Shown here: positions 15,651 to 24,862 of the stretch, one piece after another | How positions within the stretch are numbered: position 1 is the first letter of the stretch | Layout of the letters: each line of letters starts with the position of its first letter | Made by a program: the position numbers and the translations under genes | NCBI GenBank assembly: GCA_037379885.1 | Contig: JARRJC010000007.1 | Span: forward strand, 1 to 58,469 | Source of the DNA: Limibacillus sp. | GTDB taxonomy: Bacteria; Pseudomonadota; Alphaproteobacteria; Kiloniellales; CECT-8803 | Length of the DNA stretch: 58,469 nucleotides | Direction: 5' to 3' | The notes under the pieces: generated by a model | The model's input: only the letters and a program-made list of their open reading frames with translations | The model's database searches: none | Told to the model about the DNA's origin: nothing

Positions 15651-16217
15651 CTAGGTCTGGCGTGCGGGACTGAGGCTGCTGTTCGGCTCCTTCAGAGTTT
15701 CCGGCGCGCCGCGCAGGCTGTCGAGCAGCGATTGGGAGATGCGCCCGTCCACCGGAAGGCCGGCATCGGACTGGTAGGCGCCGATCGCCGCGCGCGTCGC
15801 CGGGCCGACGATTCCGTCCACGGTCGTCTGATAGTAGCCACGCTCGGCCAGTTCGCGCTGCACCTCGACGACCAGCGGATCGCTGCTGGGCTGCTGGGCG
15901 TAGGCCTTGGGGCTGGCGAACTTCATATGATCCAGAAGTTCCTTGGAGGCGCGTCCGGTGACCTTGAGGTCCGCAGTCCTTTGGTAGGCGCGGATCGCGG
16001 CGCGGGTGCGCGGCCCCATGACGCCGTCGACGGCGCCGGGACGGTAGCCAAGTTCGATGAGCTCTTCCTGGATTCCCACCACGGTGGCCCGCGCCATGCC
16101 GGGCGACATCTGTTCAAGGGTCGTCTCCCGCTGGCTTTGGGCCAGGGAAGAGTGCGGCGCCGCCGCCACAGCGGCCAGCGCAAGGACGATCATGAGAGGT
16201 AGCAGTCGAGCGCGCAT
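15651..16217 (-). CDS. Exported protein with two peptidoglycan-binding domains
   Basis: Protein of 188 residues. The N-terminus (MRARLLPLMIVLALAAVAAA) is a signal peptide. Two PG_binding_1 modules follow: IQEELIELGYRPGAVDGVMG with PRTRAAIRAYQ, and VQRELAERGYYQTTVDGIVG with PATRAAIGAYQ. Each is about 60 residues and they are separated by an Ala/Gln/Pro linker. There is no catalytic domain, so it likely tethers to the cell wall or is a partner of a wall hydrolase. The C-terminal 18 residues are Ser/Pro-rich. Upstream is the flavin reductase gene on the same strand. Confidence 0.85.
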   Translation of the reverse strand: MRARLLPLMIVLALAAVAAAPHSSLAQSQRETTLEQMSPGMARATVVGIQEELIELGYRPGAVDGVMGPRTRAAIRAYQRTADLKVTGRASKELLDHMKFASPKAYAQQPSSDPLVVEVQRELAERGYYQTTVDGIVGPATRAAIGAYQSDAGLPVDGRISQSLLDSLRGAPETLKEPNSSLSPARQT

Positions 16218-16984: not shown

Positions 16985-17332
16985 CTAGCGCAGTCTGCAT
17001 TGCGCGGCGGCCTGATATCCACCTTGCAGTTCGCCCGTTTCGTTGAAAAAGCCAACGGCCGAAGCGCCGCCTGTCTGCGGCCAGCGGAACACGACGAAGC
17101 CCTTCGCCAGATCAAGCCGGATCACGTAGTGCCCCTTGTCCTGAAGGGTGGCCGCGCGATCGCCAAAAATGGCGAGGCTGCCCGCGATCCTGGTTTCCGC
17201 GCCGTCCACGGTCAGGGAAAAGGGCTGACCCACTTTCAGCCAGCTGCACCCAAAGGTCCTGGCTTGAGCCCAGCCGTCCCCCGCCAGCAGCAGTCCCGCG
17301 GCGAGCGCCATCATGCCGAACATCCCTCTCAT
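16985..17332 (-). CDS. Small exported protein, unknown
   Basis: Predicted periplasmic protein of 115 residues. The start at 17332 follows AAAGGGAGGGACGAC and gives a signal peptide (MRGMFGMMALAAGLLLAG) with cleavage near WAQA. The mature domain of about 90 residues contains two Cys, one at each end (FGCSWLKVG and AAAQCRLR), which may form a disulfide. No family was recognised. It sits upstream of the flavin reductase gene, same strand, 43 bases apart, and divergent from the large helicase-like gene. Confidence 0.6.
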   Translation of the reverse strand: MRGMFGMMALAAGLLLAGDGWAQARTFGCSWLKVGQPFSLTVDGAETRIAGSLAIFGDRAATLQDKGHYVIRLDLAKGFVVFRWPQTGGASAVGFFNETGELQGGYQAAAQCRLR

Positions 17333-17473
17333 GTCGTCCCTCCCTTTCTCCATTCTCTCTCCTTCGAACACTATAGGGCGCGAGGGGCCGCGGGAAACCC
17401 ACGCACGATTTAGAGAGTTTTAAGCTAATTGCGCGAAGCTTCCCCGAAACACCTTCGAGGGGAGAACGACCGA

Positions 17474-20400
17474 ATGGCGGCACAGCAGCGGGCTCGCAAC
17501 GCCAACGCGCGCGGAGACTTCGCGGCGCTTCGCGACCGGGTTTGCGCGCAGCCGGAAGCGGACAGCGTGCTTGAGATCGCGTTGGCGCCGGCTGCGCCCG
17601 GCCAACTGCTCGACCATCTCATGGACGACGGCCGCTGTGTCTTCGCAGCGGCGCCAGAGCCCACCTTGCGCGAACTGATCGACTATCACGCCACGACGGA
17701 GAACGTGGCCCCTGAAGACGTGCCGCTGGCGGAGTTGAAGCCGCCCCCAGCGGATGTCTGGGCGCGCTACTGCGCGGGACGCGAGAAGGCCGAGGGGGCG
17801 CAGGACAGCGGCTGGACCAAGAAGGGCGACTGCCTGGTGCTCCAGAGCCTGGTCTTTCCCCAGACATTCCGGCAGGAGATGCGGGTTCTGGCCGCGATCA
17901 GCGAAGATTCCGCTTTGGCCGCCGGGCGCGGGCTCTACCTCGCTTTCGGCGCCTTGAGCGCCGTCGGGGAGGCGGCGGCCGAGCCTTTCCTTCTGCTGCC
18001 CGTTGCCCTGGAGCGCCCGAAGGCGAACGAGACGCGGCTTCACTGGCGTGAAACCCCACCCTTCGTCAATCCAAACGTGATCGACCTCTTGGGCGAAGCC
18101 GACGCCGCGAAGCTCCCGGCCCTGGGCGACCGTCCGGAGATCGAAGCATTTCTCCAGGCCGCCGACGAGGTGGTCGCCCGCAACCCGGACCTGAAGTTGG
18201 AGAAGGGGCTGTCGCTCCGCTGCATGGCGCTGGCGGATGCCTGGTCCTTGCGCGACCTGCGCCGCGCCGCCTGGGAAATGTCCGACGATCTTGGCGGATC
18301 AGCCGCTCTTCGCCTGCTTTCCGGTGACGACAAGGAGGCAGGCGGCGAACTCCCGCCTGCCGGGGCGGATGTCTTGGACGAGACGCTTGAGACCCCGCTG
18401 CCCTTTGACGCAGGGCAGGGCACCTTGATCGCAGCGGCGATGGCCGGCAGGCCGGTCCTGGCGCTCGGCTCGCCCGAAACCGGTAAGACCCACGCCGCCG
18501 CCGCGCTGGCCGCTGCTTTCCTGGGAGACGGGAAGACGGTGCTCTATCTCTCCGGGCAGTCCCGGTCCCGCCAGCTCTTCGCAGAGCGCCTGCGCGAGGC
18601 CGCCCTTGGCGGTCACCTTCTGGCGCTCGAACCCGACGGGCTGACCGTTGCCTCTCTGTCGGCTGCCTTGACGGGCCCTGACAAGGCTCCCGAGGGTGAA
18701 GACGCAGAGTCGGCTCTGCTGGCGGCGCGTGAGGCTCTGGAGCCCTTGCGAAAGGAACTTCAGAGCCTGCAGGCCGCGAACGAAAGCCCGCTGGGCGCCC
18801 TCGCGCTCAAGGTCAACAACATCCTCTTCGAGCTGGGCCGTCTGAAACTCGAGCATCCGCGCCTTCAAAGGGTGCTGCCCGAGGCCCCCGGCTTCGACCC
18901 GCTGGCCATTGACGACAAGAAGCGCCGGGCCGCCAAGGAGCGGCTGCTGGCAACGGAGGCGGCGGTCGCGAAGGTTTCCGCCGGGCGCCCGCTGGCACAG
19001 CATCCCTGGGCGGGAGTGACGGAACTGAGCCTGGCCGATGAGGAGCCGCGCAAGGCTTTCCTGGAGAAGACGGAGACCTTGCGAGACGCTCTCAAAGCCC
19101 TCTCCAAGGCCCTGAACCGCGACGTCGCGGCTCTCGACAAGTCGATCCCATTGAATGACGAGCTGCTCGCCGATCTGCGCAGCCTTGCGCACGACCGCGA
19201 AGCGCTGGAAGCGGAGCGTGAGCGGATCCTCGCTGCGGCGGGACTGGCCGGGCGCGTGCTGGACGGTTTGCGCATCAAAGCCAGTAACGAGCCTGCCGCG
19301 ATCCTGGCGGTGGAGAAAATGGTGGCCTTCGCCAAGGAGCCTCCAGAGGTTCTGGATCAGGTTCCGCGCTCTCTTCTGACCGAGTATGACCTTGACGACC
19401 GTCTGGAGGCGATCGAGCCGGACCTGATGCGGCTGGTCGAAGCGGCGGAGCTTCTGTCCAGCAGTTTCGATCTGGAGAAACTAAGGGCGCTGGGCCAGGA
19501 GCGGTTGCGCGAGATGGCCCAGGTCTTGCGCAAACGCGGGCTCTTCAAGTCGAGTGATTCACAATGGCGCGCGGCGCGCAGCGACCTCAAGAAGGTGCGC
19601 CGCCTGAAGGGCCGGGCGGCCGATGCGCTGATGCCGGACCTTCTGGAGGCGGCCGCGCAGTTCTTCGATGACGAGGCGGCCTTCTTCGAGGAGTCGGAGG
19701 CCGGGCATCTGCTGGGTGAGGACTTGGAGAGCGCGGCCTTCTGGCATGCTGCCTTCAAGGAGGGACGGGATTGGGTCACGCGGGTCGAGGAGGCCTTCGA
19801 CAGCGGCTTTGCCCGTCAGGTGCAGATCGGTCCGGCGCTGATCGCCCTCGAGTTGCCGGAACTGGCGAAGATCGCCGAGACCGAGCAGGACGAAGCCTTC
19901 GCCGATCTCCGCTGGACGGCCGGGCAGCTGGCCGCCGCCGATCGGGACTGGGGCTTTGCCAAGGCCTCGGCTTGGAGCGGGTATCTCGGAAGCAGGATTT
20001 CGGCGGAGAACGCGAGGCACTTCAGCCGGGTGAAGTGTAAGGAGCCGGTCGACCTCTTGGCCCTGGCCAGCGGGCTCGCCACCGAGCTCGCCAACTACGA
20101 CGCTGCCTGGGACAGCTTTATCAAGGCCGCGAACCTGCGGCAGTCCTTCTGGCTGCCCGGCGATGAAAAGACCGTCGCCAAACGCCTTCAGCGCGTGGAG
20201 CACGCCCTGTCCGATCCCGAGAGTCTGACGGAGTGGGTGGCTCTGATGACGCTGCTCAACAAGGACCGGGAACCGGGCGTGGTTGAGATCATGAAGGCGG
20301 TGGTCGCCGGAGCCGTGCCGAAGGCCGGTGCTTGCGACCTCTATGACCTGCTGCTCTTCCAGGGGCTCGCCAAGGCGGCGGAGGAGCAGTTCCCCCAGAT

Positions 20401-21811
20401 CGGGAAGTATGACGCTGAGGCGCGCGAAGCCCTTCTAGCCGACTATCTGGCCGCCGAGGCGGCGCTGCGTGAGGCGCTTGCGAAGGTGACCGCGCAGGCT
20501 TGGACGAAGAAGCGCTCAAGTTCCCCGAACGTCCCGGAGGCGCCTTCCGAGGGTTCGCTGGAGGCTTTCTTCGCCAAGCTGCTGGAGGGTGAGGCTAGCG
20601 CCGCTTGGCCCTGCATGGCGATGACCCCGGATATGGCGGCCCGTTTGCTGCCGGCCAAGGCGCAGCTGTTCGATCTGGTGATCCTGGACGACGCCGATTG
20701 CGTGGGAGAGCGCGCGATGCTGCCGGGACTCTTGCGCGCGAAACAACTCGCCGCCTTTGCCGATCCCCTGCCGCAGGGCGACCCCTATTGGCCGGGCGTG
20801 ACGGCTCTGCTGCGCGAGGCTCTGCCGAGGGTGGAGTTCTCCCGCCATTACGGCGCCCTGCCGGACGCGCTGGCCTTGCCGATCGCCAAGCTTGCCCCCT
20901 TCGATGCGATTGACCTCTCGATCCAGCGCCGGGACCCCGAGAGCGCTCCGGCGCTGTTGCTGCGCAACGAGTGGTGCGAGGGCGCCCGCAACCTGGATCC
21001 GCAGCGCGAGGCGAAGGCCGTCGCCGCCGCCGTCGTTGCCTACATGAAGCTCGGTCTACCGGAGAGCCTGGCCGTGGTCACGCTGGACGAGGCGCAGGCA
21101 CAGCGCATCGAACAGCACCTGGATCTGGCTTTTGAGGAGCAGCCCGATCTGGCCGCGCACCTCGCTGGTCCGAAAGAGGGTGGGGAGCCGCTGGTCATCG
21201 CGCCGCTGTCCGAGCTTCCCGCCCTGACCCGGGATGTGATCATCCTGTCGCCCGCCATCGACAAGACGGGTTTGGCCGCTTCGACCTTGGAGCGCCTGCC
21301 GGGCCTGCTGCTGAGGCACCGGGGACGGCTGGAGATCTTCTGCGGCCTGGAGCCCAAAGCCGTGGCGGCCGCTGGGGGCAAGGAGCCTCTCGGCGAACTC
21401 CTGGCCTTGCTGGTGGCGCGCGGCGCCTCGCTTTCCGGTGGCGATCAGGCCCTGCCGAAGCGCGAGCTCGGCCGCCTGGAGCGTTCGATCGACAGGGCTC
21501 TCTCCCTGAAGGGCCTTCAGGTGCGCCCGGACCTCGTCGATCCGAGGGGCTTCTTCCTGATCGAAGAGGGAAAGGCGCCTTTCACGCCTCTGCTGCGCCT
21601 GCGTCTGGATAGGGGCGAGGGGCAGAAGCGCGCAAGTCTTCGCGACCGGGAGCTGCCGGTGCAGGCGCGAGAGCGAGCGATTGGCTGGACCTCGGGTTTC
21701 CTGACGGCCGGCTGCTGGAGCCGTGACCCCCAAAAGGCCCTCGACCGCCTTGCCGAGCAGGTTCTTGAGGTCGCCCGGCAATCCCGGGTCGGCGAGAAGC
21801 GCCAGGCTTGA
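17474..21811 (+). CDS. Large DUF4011-type SF1 helicase/nuclease-like protein with eroded catalytic motifs
   Basis: Protein of 1445 residues; ATG 17474 follows GAGGGGAGAACGACC. The N-terminal part resembles DUF4011: ARYLA-like RGLYLAFGALSAVGE then FLLLPVALERPKANETRLHW and VNPNVIDLL. A P-loop LGSPETGKTH (residues 331-340) is followed by a long, mainly helical insertion of about 700 residues. The Walker B region reads FDLVILDDADCVGER (1066-1080), with Asp where SF1 enzymes have the catalytic Glu. The next motif, normally GDPKQLPP, is ADPLPQGDP, and the usual TRA(R)-type motif VI near 1280 is LERLPGLLLRHRGRLEIF. The last 100 residues resemble the Vsr/MTES_1575-like nuclease of such helicases (AIGWTSGFLTAGCWSRDPQK), but the ExD/ExK position is LRLRLD. 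I infer a folded but probably inactive relative. It lies 160 bases before ftsZ, same strand. Confidence 0.7.
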   Translation: MAAQQRARNANARGDFAALRDRVCAQPEADSVLEIALAPAAPGQLLDHLMDDGRCVFAAAPEPTLRELIDYHATTENVAPEDVPLAELKPPPADVWARYCAGREKAEGAQDSGWTKKGDCLVLQSLVFPQTFRQEMRVLAAISEDSALAAGRGLYLAFGALSAVGEAAAEPFLLLPVALERPKANETRLHWRETPPFVNPNVIDLLGEADAAKLPALGDRPEIEAFLQAADEVVARNPDLKLEKGLSLRCMALADAWSLRDLRRAAWEMSDDLGGSAALRLLSGDDKEAGGELPPAGADVLDETLETPLPFDAGQGTLIAAAMAGRPVLALGSPETGKTHAAAALAAAFLGDGKTVLYLSGQSRSRQLFAERLREAALGGHLLALEPDGLTVASLSAALTGPDKAPEGEDAESALLAAREALEPLRKELQSLQAANESPLGALALKVNNILFELGRLKLEHPRLQRVLPEAPGFDPLAIDDKKRRAAKERLLATEAAVAKVSAGRPLAQHPWAGVTELSLADEEPRKAFLEKTETLRDALKALSKALNRDVAALDKSIPLNDELLADLRSLAHDREALEAERERILAAAGLAGRVLDGLRIKASNEPAAILAVEKMVAFAKEPPEVLDQVPRSLLTEYDLDDRLEAIEPDLMRLVEAAELLSSSFDLEKLRALGQERLREMAQVLRKRGLFKSSDSQWRAARSDLKKVRRLKGRAADALMPDLLEAAAQFFDDEAAFFEESEAGHLLGEDLESAAFWHAAFKEGRDWVTRVEEAFDSGFARQVQIGPALIALELPELAKIAETEQDEAFADLRWTAGQLAAADRDWGFAKASAWSGYLGSRISAENARHFSRVKCKEPVDLLALASGLATELANYDAAWDSFIKAANLRQSFWLPGDEKTVAKRLQRVEHALSDPESLTEWVALMTLLNKDREPGVVEIMKAVVAGAVPKAGACDLYDLLLFQGLAKAAEEQFPQIGKYDAEAREALLADYLAAEAALREALAKVTAQAWTKKRSSSPNVPEAPSEGSLEAFFAKLLEGEASAAWPCMAMTPDMAARLLPAKAQLFDLVILDDADCVGERAMLPGLLRAKQLAAFADPLPQGDPYWPGVTALLREALPRVEFSRHYGALPDALALPIAKLAPFDAIDLSIQRRDPESAPALLLRNEWCEGARNLDPQREAKAVAAAVVAYMKLGLPESLAVVTLDEAQAQRIEQHLDLAFEEQPDLAAHLAGPKEGGEPLVIAPLSELPALTRDVIILSPAIDKTGLAASTLERLPGLLLRHRGRLEIFCGLEPKAVAAAGGKEPLGELLALLVARGASLSGGDQALPKRELGRLERSIDRALSLKGLQVRPDLVDPRGFFLIEEGKAPFTPLLRLRLDRGEGQKRASLRDRELPVQARERAIGWTSGFLTAGCWSRDPQKALDRLAEQVLEVARQSRVGEKRQA

Positions 21812-21874: not shown

Positions 21875-21890
21875 TTAAACCGTTCTTAAC
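21875..21890 (+). promoter_or_regulatory. CtrA binding site upstream of ftsZ
   Basis: TTAA-ACCGTTC-TTAAC is an exact match to the CtrA full-site consensus TTAA-N7-TTAAC. It is 82-97 bases upstream of the ftsZ ATG, in the only gap between the helicase-like gene and ftsZ. In Caulobacter CtrA binds such sites and controls ftsZ. Confidence 0.7.
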
Positions 21891-21971: not shown

Positions 21972-23990
21972 ATGTCGCAGCACGATTACGAGCAAAAACC
22001 GAATATCACCGTCGTCGGTGTCGGCGGCGCGGGTGGGAACGCGGTCAACAACATGATCGAATCCAACCTTGAGGGTGTGGATTTCGTGGTCGCCAATACC
22101 GATGCCCAGGCGCTGAAACACTCGCTCTGTCAAAATCGCGTTCAGCTCGGCAGCGGGCTCGGCGCGGGTGCTGTGGCCGACGTCGGACGTCAGGCCGCCG
22201 AAGACTCCGCTGAGGACATCCGCAAATGCCTTGAAGGCGCGAACATGGCCTTCATCACCGCCGGCATGGGTGGCGGTACCGGCACCGGGGCTGCGCCGGT
22301 CGTCGCGCGCATCGCCAAGGAGATGGGCATCCTGACCATCGGCGTGGTGACCAAGCCGTTCCACTTCGAGGGCAGCCACCGCATGCGCTCCGCCGAAAAG
22401 GGCATTGAGACCCTGGAAGGCAACGTCGACACCATGATCATGATCCCGAACCAGAACCTGTTCCGGGTCTGCGATGCCAACACGACCTTCGCCGACGCCT
22501 TCAAGATGGCCGACGGCGTGCTGCACTCCGGCGTGCGCAGCGTCACCGATCTGATCGTGATGCCCGGCCTCATCAACCTCGACTTCGCCGATATCCGCTC
22601 GGTCATGCACAACATGGGTAAGGCCATGATGGGCATGGGCGAGGGCAGCGGCGAGGAGCGCGCCACCAAGGCCGCGCAGGCCGCCATCACCAACCCCTTG
22701 CTCGACGACGTGTCCATGCAGGGCGCCCAGGGTGTGCTGATCAACATCACCGGCGGCATGGACATGACCCTCTTCGAGGTCGACGAGGTCGCCAACCGCA
22801 TTCGCGAAGAGGTGGACCCCGAGGCTCAGATCATCTTCGGCTCCGCCTTCGACGAGACGATGGAAGGCTCCCTGCGCGTCTCCGTGGTCGCGACCGGGTT
22901 CGACCGCGAGGCGCACCTGCGCCGCCAGAAGGCGATGGAGGAAGAGGCCGCAAAACGCAAAGAGGCCGGCAGCAGCCGACCCTTCACCGTGGTCGCGGGC
23001 GATAAGAAGGAAGAAGAGAGCCTTGCCGCTCCTGAAACGGCGGCCGCTGAAGGCGACGCCGCTCCCGATTGGCTGAAGCCGGTTTCCGACGACGAGACCC
23101 CTGGCAACGCTCTCGCGAATCTCGACACGCCGGAGCCCGAGGCTGACGCCGAGGAGCACGACGTCCCAGAGCCGGAGAACGCGGAGCGCGAGGCTTCACA
23201 CTCTGCCGACGAAGAGCCCGGCGATAGCGAGCCCGCGGAAGAAGAAGACGCGCTCGCCGAGCCCGTGGCCGCTGAGGCCGCGCCCGCTGAGCCCGAACAG
23301 GCATCGGACGAGGACCAGGGGTCGGATGGCGTCGAGCCTGAGAGCGAGCCGGTCGTCGCCGCCGCCTCCGGCGAGATCGACAAAGACCTGGTCGAGGATG
23401 TCACCAACTGGATCACCAAGGCCTACATCGAAGACGATGCCTCGGCTCCTGACGCTTCGAGCGAGCAGGTCTCCGCAGAGGCGGCCGACGCCGGGTCCGA
23501 TGATGTCGCGGCGAGCCTTTCCAAGATCTGGAATGAGACCGGCGCTTCGAAGAAAAGCGAGACCAAGGCGGTCAACGGTCACAATGGCCACAACGGCTCC
23601 TCCAACGGTGTCGATGTCTCCAGCATCTTCCTGGACGGCTCCGCCGATGGTGGCGATCAGGCCGAAGCCGAGGCCGACGGCCACACCGGCGACGGCCACG
23701 CGGATGACCACCAGGCGGACGACGATCTGGAGAAGGATGAAGTCGCCGCCCGGTCCAGCCAGCGCGATGACGACGACCAGCATCCTGGTGGATCGGACAG
23801 CCTGAATGACAGCGACGACGTCTCGATCGAGGAGGACGAAGAAGAGGAGGCCGAGGTGCCTCAGCGCGCTTCGGGGTTCTTCAGCGGGCTGCGCCGCGGC
23901 TTCAATAAGCCGACCCGTGACGAGCAGACCGGCAAGGCCGTGCTCGAACGGCTGCGCGGCTGCCAGCGCGTGAACACCGGGGAGGCTTAA
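21972..23990 (+). CDS. ftsZ: Divergent FtsZ (orphan, long acidic C-terminal region)
   Basis: Tubulin-like GTPase of 672 residues. Residues 11-312 form the core: [15 protein letters not shown], the tubulin signature [10 protein letters not shown] (100-109) and the catalytic T7 loop NLDFAD (202-207). Just before the T3 loop it reads [10 protein letters not shown], four residues shorter than ordinary FtsZ (E. coli SGITKGLGAG). Residues 320-630 are a long Asp/Glu/Ala/Ser-rich linker, and the end ([20 protein letters not shown] and on) is basic and lacks the usual C-terminal peptide of the IPAFLRR type that binds FtsA and other partners. There is no ftsQ, ftsA or mur gene nearby. It is probably a second, non-canonical FtsZ rather than the main division protein. 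A CtrA site precedes it and a perfect terminator follows. Confidence 0.88.
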
Positions 23991-24846: not shown

Positions 24847-24862
24847 TTAACAAAGTCTTAAC
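24847..24862 (-). promoter_or_regulatory. CtrA binding site upstream of the receiver gene
   Basis: TTAA-CAAAGTC-TTAAC matches TTAA-N7-TTAAC exactly. It lies in the 200-base gap upstream of the receiver protein's start at 24801 and downstream of the CBS gene. Confidence 0.65.

What the first reader, a model, noticed from the sequence alone, without database searches (positions are those of the whole stretch)
17474..21811. Large helicase-nuclease relative that seems to have lost its catalytic residues
The protein keeps the overall order of DUF4011-type SF1 helicases with a C-terminal nuclease, and a usable P-loop, but the Walker B Glu is Asp (LDDAD), the Gln-containing motif after it is ADPLPQGDP, the TRA motif VI is gone, and the nuclease acidic pair is lost (LRLRLD). 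A folded, intact frame over 4.3 kb with correlated loss at several sites suggests a conserved pseudoenzyme doing something other than unwinding, for example acting as a DNA or division-site scaffold. It sits directly before an unusual ftsZ.
Basis: partly seen in the sequence, partly recalled or inferred. Interest (0 to 1): 0.65.

Follow-up and report, generated by a model that had tools for sequence, protein, structure and literature searches.

The report
Dead helicase-nuclease from antiphage family
A bacterium carries an intact gene for a very large protein descended from a virus-fighting DNA-unwinding and DNA-cutting enzyme, but nearly all the parts needed for unwinding and cutting have changed while the ATP-holding pocket survives, so it is probably a retired enzyme kept for another job.

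Summary
ORF 17474-21811 (1445 aa) is a divergent homologue of Hhe-type antiphage proteins (DUF4011, Upf1-like SF1B helicase, MTES_1575/Vsr nuclease): NCBIfam Hhe E=1.3e-59, 202 bits. Against 93 related proteins it alone has a dead motor: DEASQ->DDADC, QLPPT->PLPQG, HYRS->HYGA, QGDERD->LPALTRD, TRAR->LRHR (75 of the 93 were fetched with patterns favouring intact motifs). The nuclease Glu is lost too, as in 17 of 88 relatives. It keeps the Q-motif Gln, P-loop and Walker B Asp (6/6 ATP-contact columns against 1/17 DNA-contact/coupling columns; sets chosen by me). The frame is intact with coding GC3; the predicted fold is still IGHMBP2/Upf1-like (Z 18.2). Best reading: an ATP-binding pseudo-helicase-nuclease under selection, used as a nucleic-acid or protein clamp. 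No orthologue was found, so "conserved pseudoenzyme" cannot be tested. The ftsZ link is not supported: the neighbour is a second ftsZ with its own CtrA-like box, and in the sister genus that ftsZ keeps other neighbours but has no such helicase beside it.

The parts
17474..21811 (+). whole gene, 1445 aa pseudo-helicase-nuclease derived from the Hhe/ProA (DUF4011-SF1B-REase) family
17474..18373 (+). N-terminal DUF4011-like domain (residues 1-300), RNxLL region changed; predicted to fold mostly with high confidence
   Evidence: Pfam DUF4011 17.1 bits, cut-off 22.2; alignment; AF2 of residues 1-430, blocks between 31 and 250 mostly 85-97
18377..18421 (+). Q-motif region (residues 302-316; D312, Q315 kept)
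18467..18490 (+). motif I / Walker A GSPETGKT (332-339), intact
20678..20701 (+). motif II VILDDADC (1069-1076) in place of VIFDEASQ
20759..20785 (+). motif III ADPLPQGDP (1096-1104) in place of GDxxQLPPT
20846..20857 (+). motif IV HYGA (1125-1128) in place of HYRS
21209..21235 (+). motif V SELPALTRD (1246-1254) in place of ENVQGDERD
21299..21322 (+). motif VI PGLLLRHR (1276-1283) in place of NVLxTRAR; Arg1281 kept
21596..21610 (+). changed nuclease centre RLRLD (1375-1379) in place of GIECD
21875..21889 (+). CtrA-like box TTAA-N7-TTAA in front of ftsZ2, between it and the helicase gene
   Evidence: 2 in window, 0.01 expected; also before the sister-genus ftsZ2
21972..23990 (+). neighbour: second ftsZ; not thought to share the function

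Best explanation
The gene encodes a pseudo-helicase-nuclease. An Hhe-type ancestor (DUF4011 domain, Upf1/IGHMBP2-like SF1B motor with a long helical insert, MTES_1575/Vsr-type nuclease) lost the residues for ATP hydrolysis, for coupling hydrolysis to DNA movement and for cutting, while the fold and the ATP-binding pocket were kept by selection. Shown: homology, motif losses, intact coding frame, kept ATP-contact residues. Predicted: the fold. Inferred: it binds ATP, hydrolyses it slowly or not at all, and acts as a nucleotide-gated clamp or scaffold for nucleic acid or a partner protein, comparable in fate to RecC, AddB or Utp25. The partner and the process are unknown; no recognisable paralogue was found in the same genome.
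For: Hhe E=1.3e-59, 202 bits, whereas a same-order relative scores 1483 bits. Motif survey, canonical among scorable relatives (18 BLAST-fetched plus up to 75 pattern-fetched): II DE 93/93, III GD 93/93, IV Arg 92/92, V QG 90/90, VI [TS]R 89/89. Q keeps 65 of 143 columns conserved at 90% or more in 71 relatives (48% where it has letters; next lowest 76%, median 98%), but 6/6 ATP-contact columns against 1/17 DNA-contact/coupling columns. GC by codon position .745/.47/.82, similar along the gene, no stop in frame, 6-36 stops in each of the other five frames. Simulated neutral drift to 24% identity gives 7 or more stops in 12 of 12 runs (mean 13), without indels. Predicted fold: IGHMBP2 Z 18.2 over 343 residues, rmsd 4.4; Foldseek top rows are Aquarius/spliceosome, Dna2, IGHMBP2, Upf1. 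No second match to the protein, nor any DUF4011, AAA_12 or MTES_1575 match, in the genome.
Against: One genome only, so selection on the protein cannot be measured from orthologues. The ATP and coupling column sets were chosen after the alignment was seen; against all other conserved columns the ATP excess is only p=0.013. Recent decay is not excluded: drift to 90% identity left at least one simulated copy without a stop (20 runs, mean 2.5, minimum 0). The structure models used alignments of relatives with intact motors, which pulls them to the family fold, and Foldseek TM-scores are low (0.13-0.32 in the 42 rows with E<=0.001). About half of the family-conserved columns are changed in each domain, and Ala/Leu content is high (17%/15%), as in a relaxed gene. 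E->D in motif II and the kept motif VI Arg leave room for some ATPase activity. The Pfam searches of the genome did not see this protein itself, so an equally diverged partner would be missed.
Confidence: 0.6

Rival explanations
1. A decaying remnant of an Hhe-type defence gene, no longer functional, that happens still to be open.
For: No orthologue found; broad loss of conserved residues (65/143 kept); longest terminal branch in the tree (3.35 against a median of 0.60); single gene at a place where the sister genus has other genes; drift to 90% identity can leave no stop.
Against: No stop in 1445 codons, where neutral drift to 24% identity gave 7 or more stops in 12 of 12 runs and to 60% identity 3 or more in 12 of 12, indels not counted; even codon-position GC along the gene; ATP-pocket residues kept while coupling residues are lost.
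Confidence: 0.17
2. A divergent but still active nucleic-acid-dependent ATPase (not a processive helicase) with a rewired motor: Asp as catalytic base, motif VI Arg kept, nuclease lost.
For: P-loop, Q-motif, Walker B Asp, motif III Asp and motif VI Arg all kept; E->D is conservative; loss of the nuclease Glu with an intact motor occurs in 17 of 88 relatives.
Against: Motif III Gln, motif IV Arg and motif V QG are lost together, which none of the scorable relatives shows.
Confidence: 0.17
3. A division-site scaffold working with the adjacent FtsZ.
For: Same strand, 160 bp apart, no sigma-70-like or terminator-like match between them.
Against: ftsZ2 has its own CtrA-like box; the syntenic sister-genus ftsZ2 lacks this neighbour but keeps others; no homologue in 13 other ftsZ stretches read.
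Confidence: 0.03

Closest known systems
Hhe antiphage protein (NCBIfam NF042953; PADLOC Hhe, PDC-S37)
   Same: Order of DUF4011-like domain, split SF1B motor with helical insert, REase; best family hits; highest BLAST sums are to L105, L043, L107, L044, L120, of which L043 and L105 match Hhe and PDC-S37 strongly
   Different: 202 bits where the cut-off is 2000 (the intact relative L043, 1483 bits, is also below it); helicase motifs II-VI and nuclease Glu changed; ends right after the nuclease; alone in a housekeeping-type neighbourhood
ProA antiphage protein (NF058533)
   Same: E=1e-46, best stretch 169-1107
   Different: 159 bits where the cut-off is 1500 (L043 1145 bits); same losses
Nuclease-Glu-less DUF4011 helicases (e.g. 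L055, L057, L121, L149)
   Same: Catalytic Glu of the REase replaced (17 of 88 scorable relatives)
   Different: They keep the helicase motifs (L055 has Glu for the motif III Gln)
Utp25, a eukaryotic DEAD-box-like pseudohelicase (PMC9539457; abstract and figure legend read)
   Same: Helicase fold kept, motifs dispensable
   Different: Different superfamily (SF2, recalled) and process
RecC and AddB (recalled, not read here)
   Same: SF1 helicase-nuclease homologues in bacteria that lost motor activity (RecC both activities) and bind DNA inside an active complex
   Different: UvrD-like SF1A, with an active partner; Q is Upf1-like SF1B and no partner is known

Membership tests
Hhe (NF042953) equivalog | score at or above 2000 bits | tested here: not met
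   201.8 bits, E=1.3e-59; note that intact L043 also misses it (1483 bits)
DUF4011 (PF13195) | gathering score 22.2 bits | tested here: not met
   17.1 bits, E=0.0055; relative L043 136.5 bits
DUF4011 helicase: ATP binding | Q-motif Gln, Walker A GKS/T, Walker B Asp | tested here: met
   6/6 columns, Ser/Thr counted as equal
DUF4011 helicase: motor | DE-Q, GD..QLPPT, HYRS, QGDERD, NV..[TS]R | tested here: not met
   DDADC, ADPLPQGDP, HYGA, LPALTRD, PGLLLR
MTES_1575 / Vsr-like REase (PF18741) | Pfam match; upstream Asp and E-x-D | tested here: not met
   no Pfam match listed at E<=5; RLD in place of ECD
Upf1-like SF1B fold | two RecA domains in the IGHMBP2/Upf1 arrangement | tested here: met
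   predicted model only, from an alignment of intact relatives: Z 18.2 to 4b3g, 343 residues, rmsd 4.4
RecC-like inactive subunit | works in a complex with an active motor | not testable with these tools
   no DUF4011, AAA_12 or MTES_1575 match in the genome, but a partner could be of another family or as diverged as this protein
antiphage defence system | protects cells against phages | not testable with these tools
   no defence gene seen among the 20 neighbouring ORFs scanned with Pfam

The most novel reading that the evidence does not exclude
A bacterial antiphage helicase-nuclease of the Upf1-like SF1B class has been domesticated, in one alphaproteobacterial lineage, into an ATP-switched clamp that neither moves on nucleic acid nor cuts it: a RecC-like fate reached independently in another helicase branch.
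Probability: 0.35. Interest if true: 0.65.

Novelty: new variant of a known kind. Interest (0 to 1): 0.45.

Why it matters
Bacterial pseudohelicases are few, and those I know of sit in recombination complexes (recalled). An intact, doubly dead relative of an antiphage enzyme would show that defence proteins can be turned into regulators or structural factors, and the split between kept ATP contacts and lost DNA contacts gives a direct biochemical test. It also warns that a strong Hhe profile hit need not mean an active defence system.

Tried and rejected
Misalignment: rejected. Two MAFFT runs and a profile alignment built from the first agree for motifs I, II, V, VI and the nuclease; in the profile alignment motifs III and IV of Q came out as gaps, so these two are read from MAFFT only.

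Frameshift hiding the canonical motifs: rejected; the domain profiles match frame 1 only of the three forward frames.

In some searches only the top two candidates per genome were scored.

Biases and drops: the relatives were fetched with two patterns, one an intact P-loop, the other the stretch before motif II, so rarity of dead motors is overstated for that set. The 18 relatives fetched from BLAST hits (18 of the 35 other genomes hit) do not have that bias; all 18 have DE, GD and the motif IV Arg, and one has Glu for the motif III Gln. Of the 47 other genomes hit only G072, G129 and G340, already fetched, were read for motifs; G820 was not. The 94 rows come from 93 loci, L115 giving two, one of which may be another kind of SF1 protein; one duplicate (L177, same contig as L047) was dropped, leaving 93. 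Four loci (L106, L161, L164, L184) gave only an N-terminal piece and are not in the counts; four others (L134, L162, L166, L178) are counted through a separate C-terminal piece. Of 78 eligible full-length relatives the first 70 were used, plus L044. An earlier count said 95 relatives; that was a miscount.

Tree placement of Q is not trusted: midpoint rooting fell on its own branch.

Fold of the DUF4011 domain: no PDB match at E<=0.001 (best E 0.43). The nuclease part was barely tested.

Mobile-element origin: no tRNA in the window and no clear flanking direct repeat (20 of 29 families shown, those shown all inexact; one search looked within each flank only).

CtrA box as a general feature of second ftsZ genes: only partly; an exact box was found in 5 of 13 other stretches (L091, L092, L099, L100, L101), not in the other 8.

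Literature (open-access library only): DUF4011 in 3 papers; no paper on a dead Hhe/DUF4011 helicase stood out in the listings, some of which show a capped list. Passages only were seen of PMC10250203, PMC13249269 and PMC3710099; abstract and figure legend of PMC9539457. RecC and AddB are recalled; one search gave listings only.

Full report
What is there. The frame 17429-21811 (+) is open; the ATG at 17474, preceded by a GGGGAG stretch, gives 1445 aa. NCBIfam reports the antiphage proteins Hhe (1.3e-59, 202 bits, cut-off 2000) and ProA (1e-46, 159 bits, cut-off 1500); PADLOC reports PDC-S37 (1.9e-46) and Hhe (2.4e-24). Pfam gives DUF4011 below its cut-off (17.1 against 22.2 bits) and lists no AAA_12 or MTES_1575 match. 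As a control, a same-order relative (G016, L043) scores 1483 bits for Hhe (itself below the cut-off) and matches DUF4011 1e-39, MTES_1575 1.5e-33 and AAA_12 3e-18. The protein is therefore a real but strongly diverged member of that lineage. Passages of PMC3710099 describe giant proteins that join an SF-I helicase, a Vsr-type REase (MTES_1575) and wHTH domains (overlapping DUF3320); the window protein ends after the nuclease.

Which residues changed. In a MAFFT alignment with 18 relatives and in profile alignments with 94 rows, motif I is intact (GSPETGKT). Motif II DEASQ is DDADC, motif III GDxxQLPPT is ADPLPQGDP, motif IV HYRS is HYGA, motif V QGDERD is LPALTRD, motif VI NVxxTRAR is PGLLLRHR with its Arg kept, and nuclease ECDGA is RLDRG. 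Counting 93 rows after one duplicate: Walker A 87/87, DE 93/93, motif II Gln 93/93, GD 93/93, motif III Gln 92/93 (L055 has Glu), motif IV Arg 92/92, QG 90/90 and [TS]R 89/89 are canonical; the nuclease Glu is kept in 71/88 (15/17 in the BLAST set, 56/71 in the pattern set) and the upstream nuclease Asp in 87/88. So loss of the nuclease Glu is common in this family, whereas a dead motor was seen only here. The 75 pattern-set rows were fetched with patterns that favour intact motifs; the 18 BLAST relatives were not.

Pattern of the loss. Of 143 columns conserved at 90% or more in 71 relatives, Q keeps 65 (48% of those where it has a letter; next lowest L055 76%, median 98%), while at the most variable columns it is much less apart (19% against a median of 26%). 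Six of six ground-state ATP contacts are kept (Q315, G332, G337, K338, S/T339, D1072), against 1 of 17 DNA-contact or coupling columns (Fisher p 7e-5); against all other conserved columns p is 0.013. I chose these sets from general SF1 knowledge after seeing the alignment, so the p-values are indicative only.

Is it a dead gene? Codon-position GC is .745/.47/.82 and similar along the gene, with no stop in frame and 6-36 stops in each of the other five frames. A relative's coding sequence drifting neutrally to 24% identity with the GC3 of this gene collected 7 or more stops in 12 of 12 runs (mean 13), to 60% identity 3 or more in 12 of 12 (mean 6.8), and to 90% identity a mean of 2.5 with a minimum of 0 in 20 runs, with no indels modelled. 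Long-lasting neutral decay is therefore unlikely; decay begun recently, after fast change under some selection, cannot be excluded. The terminal branch is 3.35 against a median of 0.60; the next longest belong to L057 and L055, which lack the nuclease Glu.

Fold. AlphaFold2 with an alignment of 41 relatives gives residues 296-1445 at mean pLDDT 75, pTM 0.64, with both RecA domains in an IGHMBP2/Upf1-like arrangement (Z 18.2 over 343 residues, rmsd 4.4; Foldseek E 1e-6 to 1e-5 to Aquarius, Dna2 and IGHMBP2, with low TM-scores) and a C-terminal helix-strand order compatible with the REase fold (my reading of the DSSP line). Residues 1-430 give mean pLDDT 78, without a PDB match for the DUF4011 part. 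The alignments hold relatives with intact motors, so the fold is suggested, not proven.

Surroundings. The gene sits among flavin reductase, peptidoglycan-binding, response-regulator, CBS, ABC-3 type transporter, PhoX and photolyase genes; no defence gene was seen among 20 neighbouring ORFs scanned with Pfam. The genome has no second match to the protein, no DUF4011, MTES_1575 or AAA_12 match (these models do not see the window protein either) and two ftsZ genes. The window's ftsZ has its best match outside the genome in the sister genus (76% over residues 1-313). There it keeps the response-regulator and CBS genes on one side and the small ORF homologous to 16985-17371 on the other, but an alanine-racemase/DSD1-like protein and a 2OG-oxygenase-like protein (named by me from sequence) stand where the helicase is. 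A TTAA-N7-TTAA box (CtrA site, recalled consensus) ends 83 bp before the ftsZ2 ATG; an exact box lies before 5 of 13 other ftsZ genes read, the sister one included, and none before the other ftsZ of this genome. The adjacency to ftsZ is thus most likely incidental.

Taxonomy. G202, of the same class, has a contig of the same length (2837007) as the named record BAOK01000001 'Alpha proteobacterium Mf 1.05b.01', so the class is Alphaproteobacteria by inference.

Mechanism. Inferred: ATP binding holds the two RecA domains in a closed state around nucleic acid or a partner; without hydrolysis and coupling the protein cannot move, and without the Glu it cannot cut. Which process it serves is unknown. 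RecC and AddB (recalled) and Utp25 (PMC9539457, abstract read) are the precedents for such a fate.

Verdict. An intact gene for an unusual protein: a doubly dead relative of an antiphage enzyme, known from one genome. Interest is moderate because conservation and function could not be tested.

Noticed in passing
window 21875-21889 and 24847-24861; L091 6583-6597 and 3391-3405: CtrA-like boxes (TTAA-N7-TTAA) before a second ftsZ and a response-regulator gene, in the same places in the sister genus; 2 in the window against 0.01 expected. Exact boxes before 5 of 13 other ftsZ genes read. Suggests a CtrA-controlled second FtsZ in part of the order.
   Followed up: partly
window 21972-23990; G000:C9:3174-4430: The genome has two ftsZ genes; the window copy has a long acidic C-terminal tail. 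Another 12 of 57 related genomes also show two strong FtsZ matches (some may be split contigs).
   Followed up: partly
L055, L057, L121, L122, L127, L132, L133, L134, L149, L156, L159, L160, L163, L165, L167, L172, L176: DUF4011 proteins without the nuclease Glu but with intact motors (17 of 88): the ECD of the REase is replaced, often by a GIxxDG form. A possible separate class of helicase without DNase.
   Followed up: partly
L055 (G129:C122): Partly degenerate relative: TPPGTGKS, motif III Gln->Glu, nuclease Glu lost; second lowest in conserved-column retention (76%).
   Followed up: no
window 15651-16217 (-): Small protein with two peptidoglycan-binding stretches and a signal-like N-terminus near the second ftsZ.
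   Followed up: no
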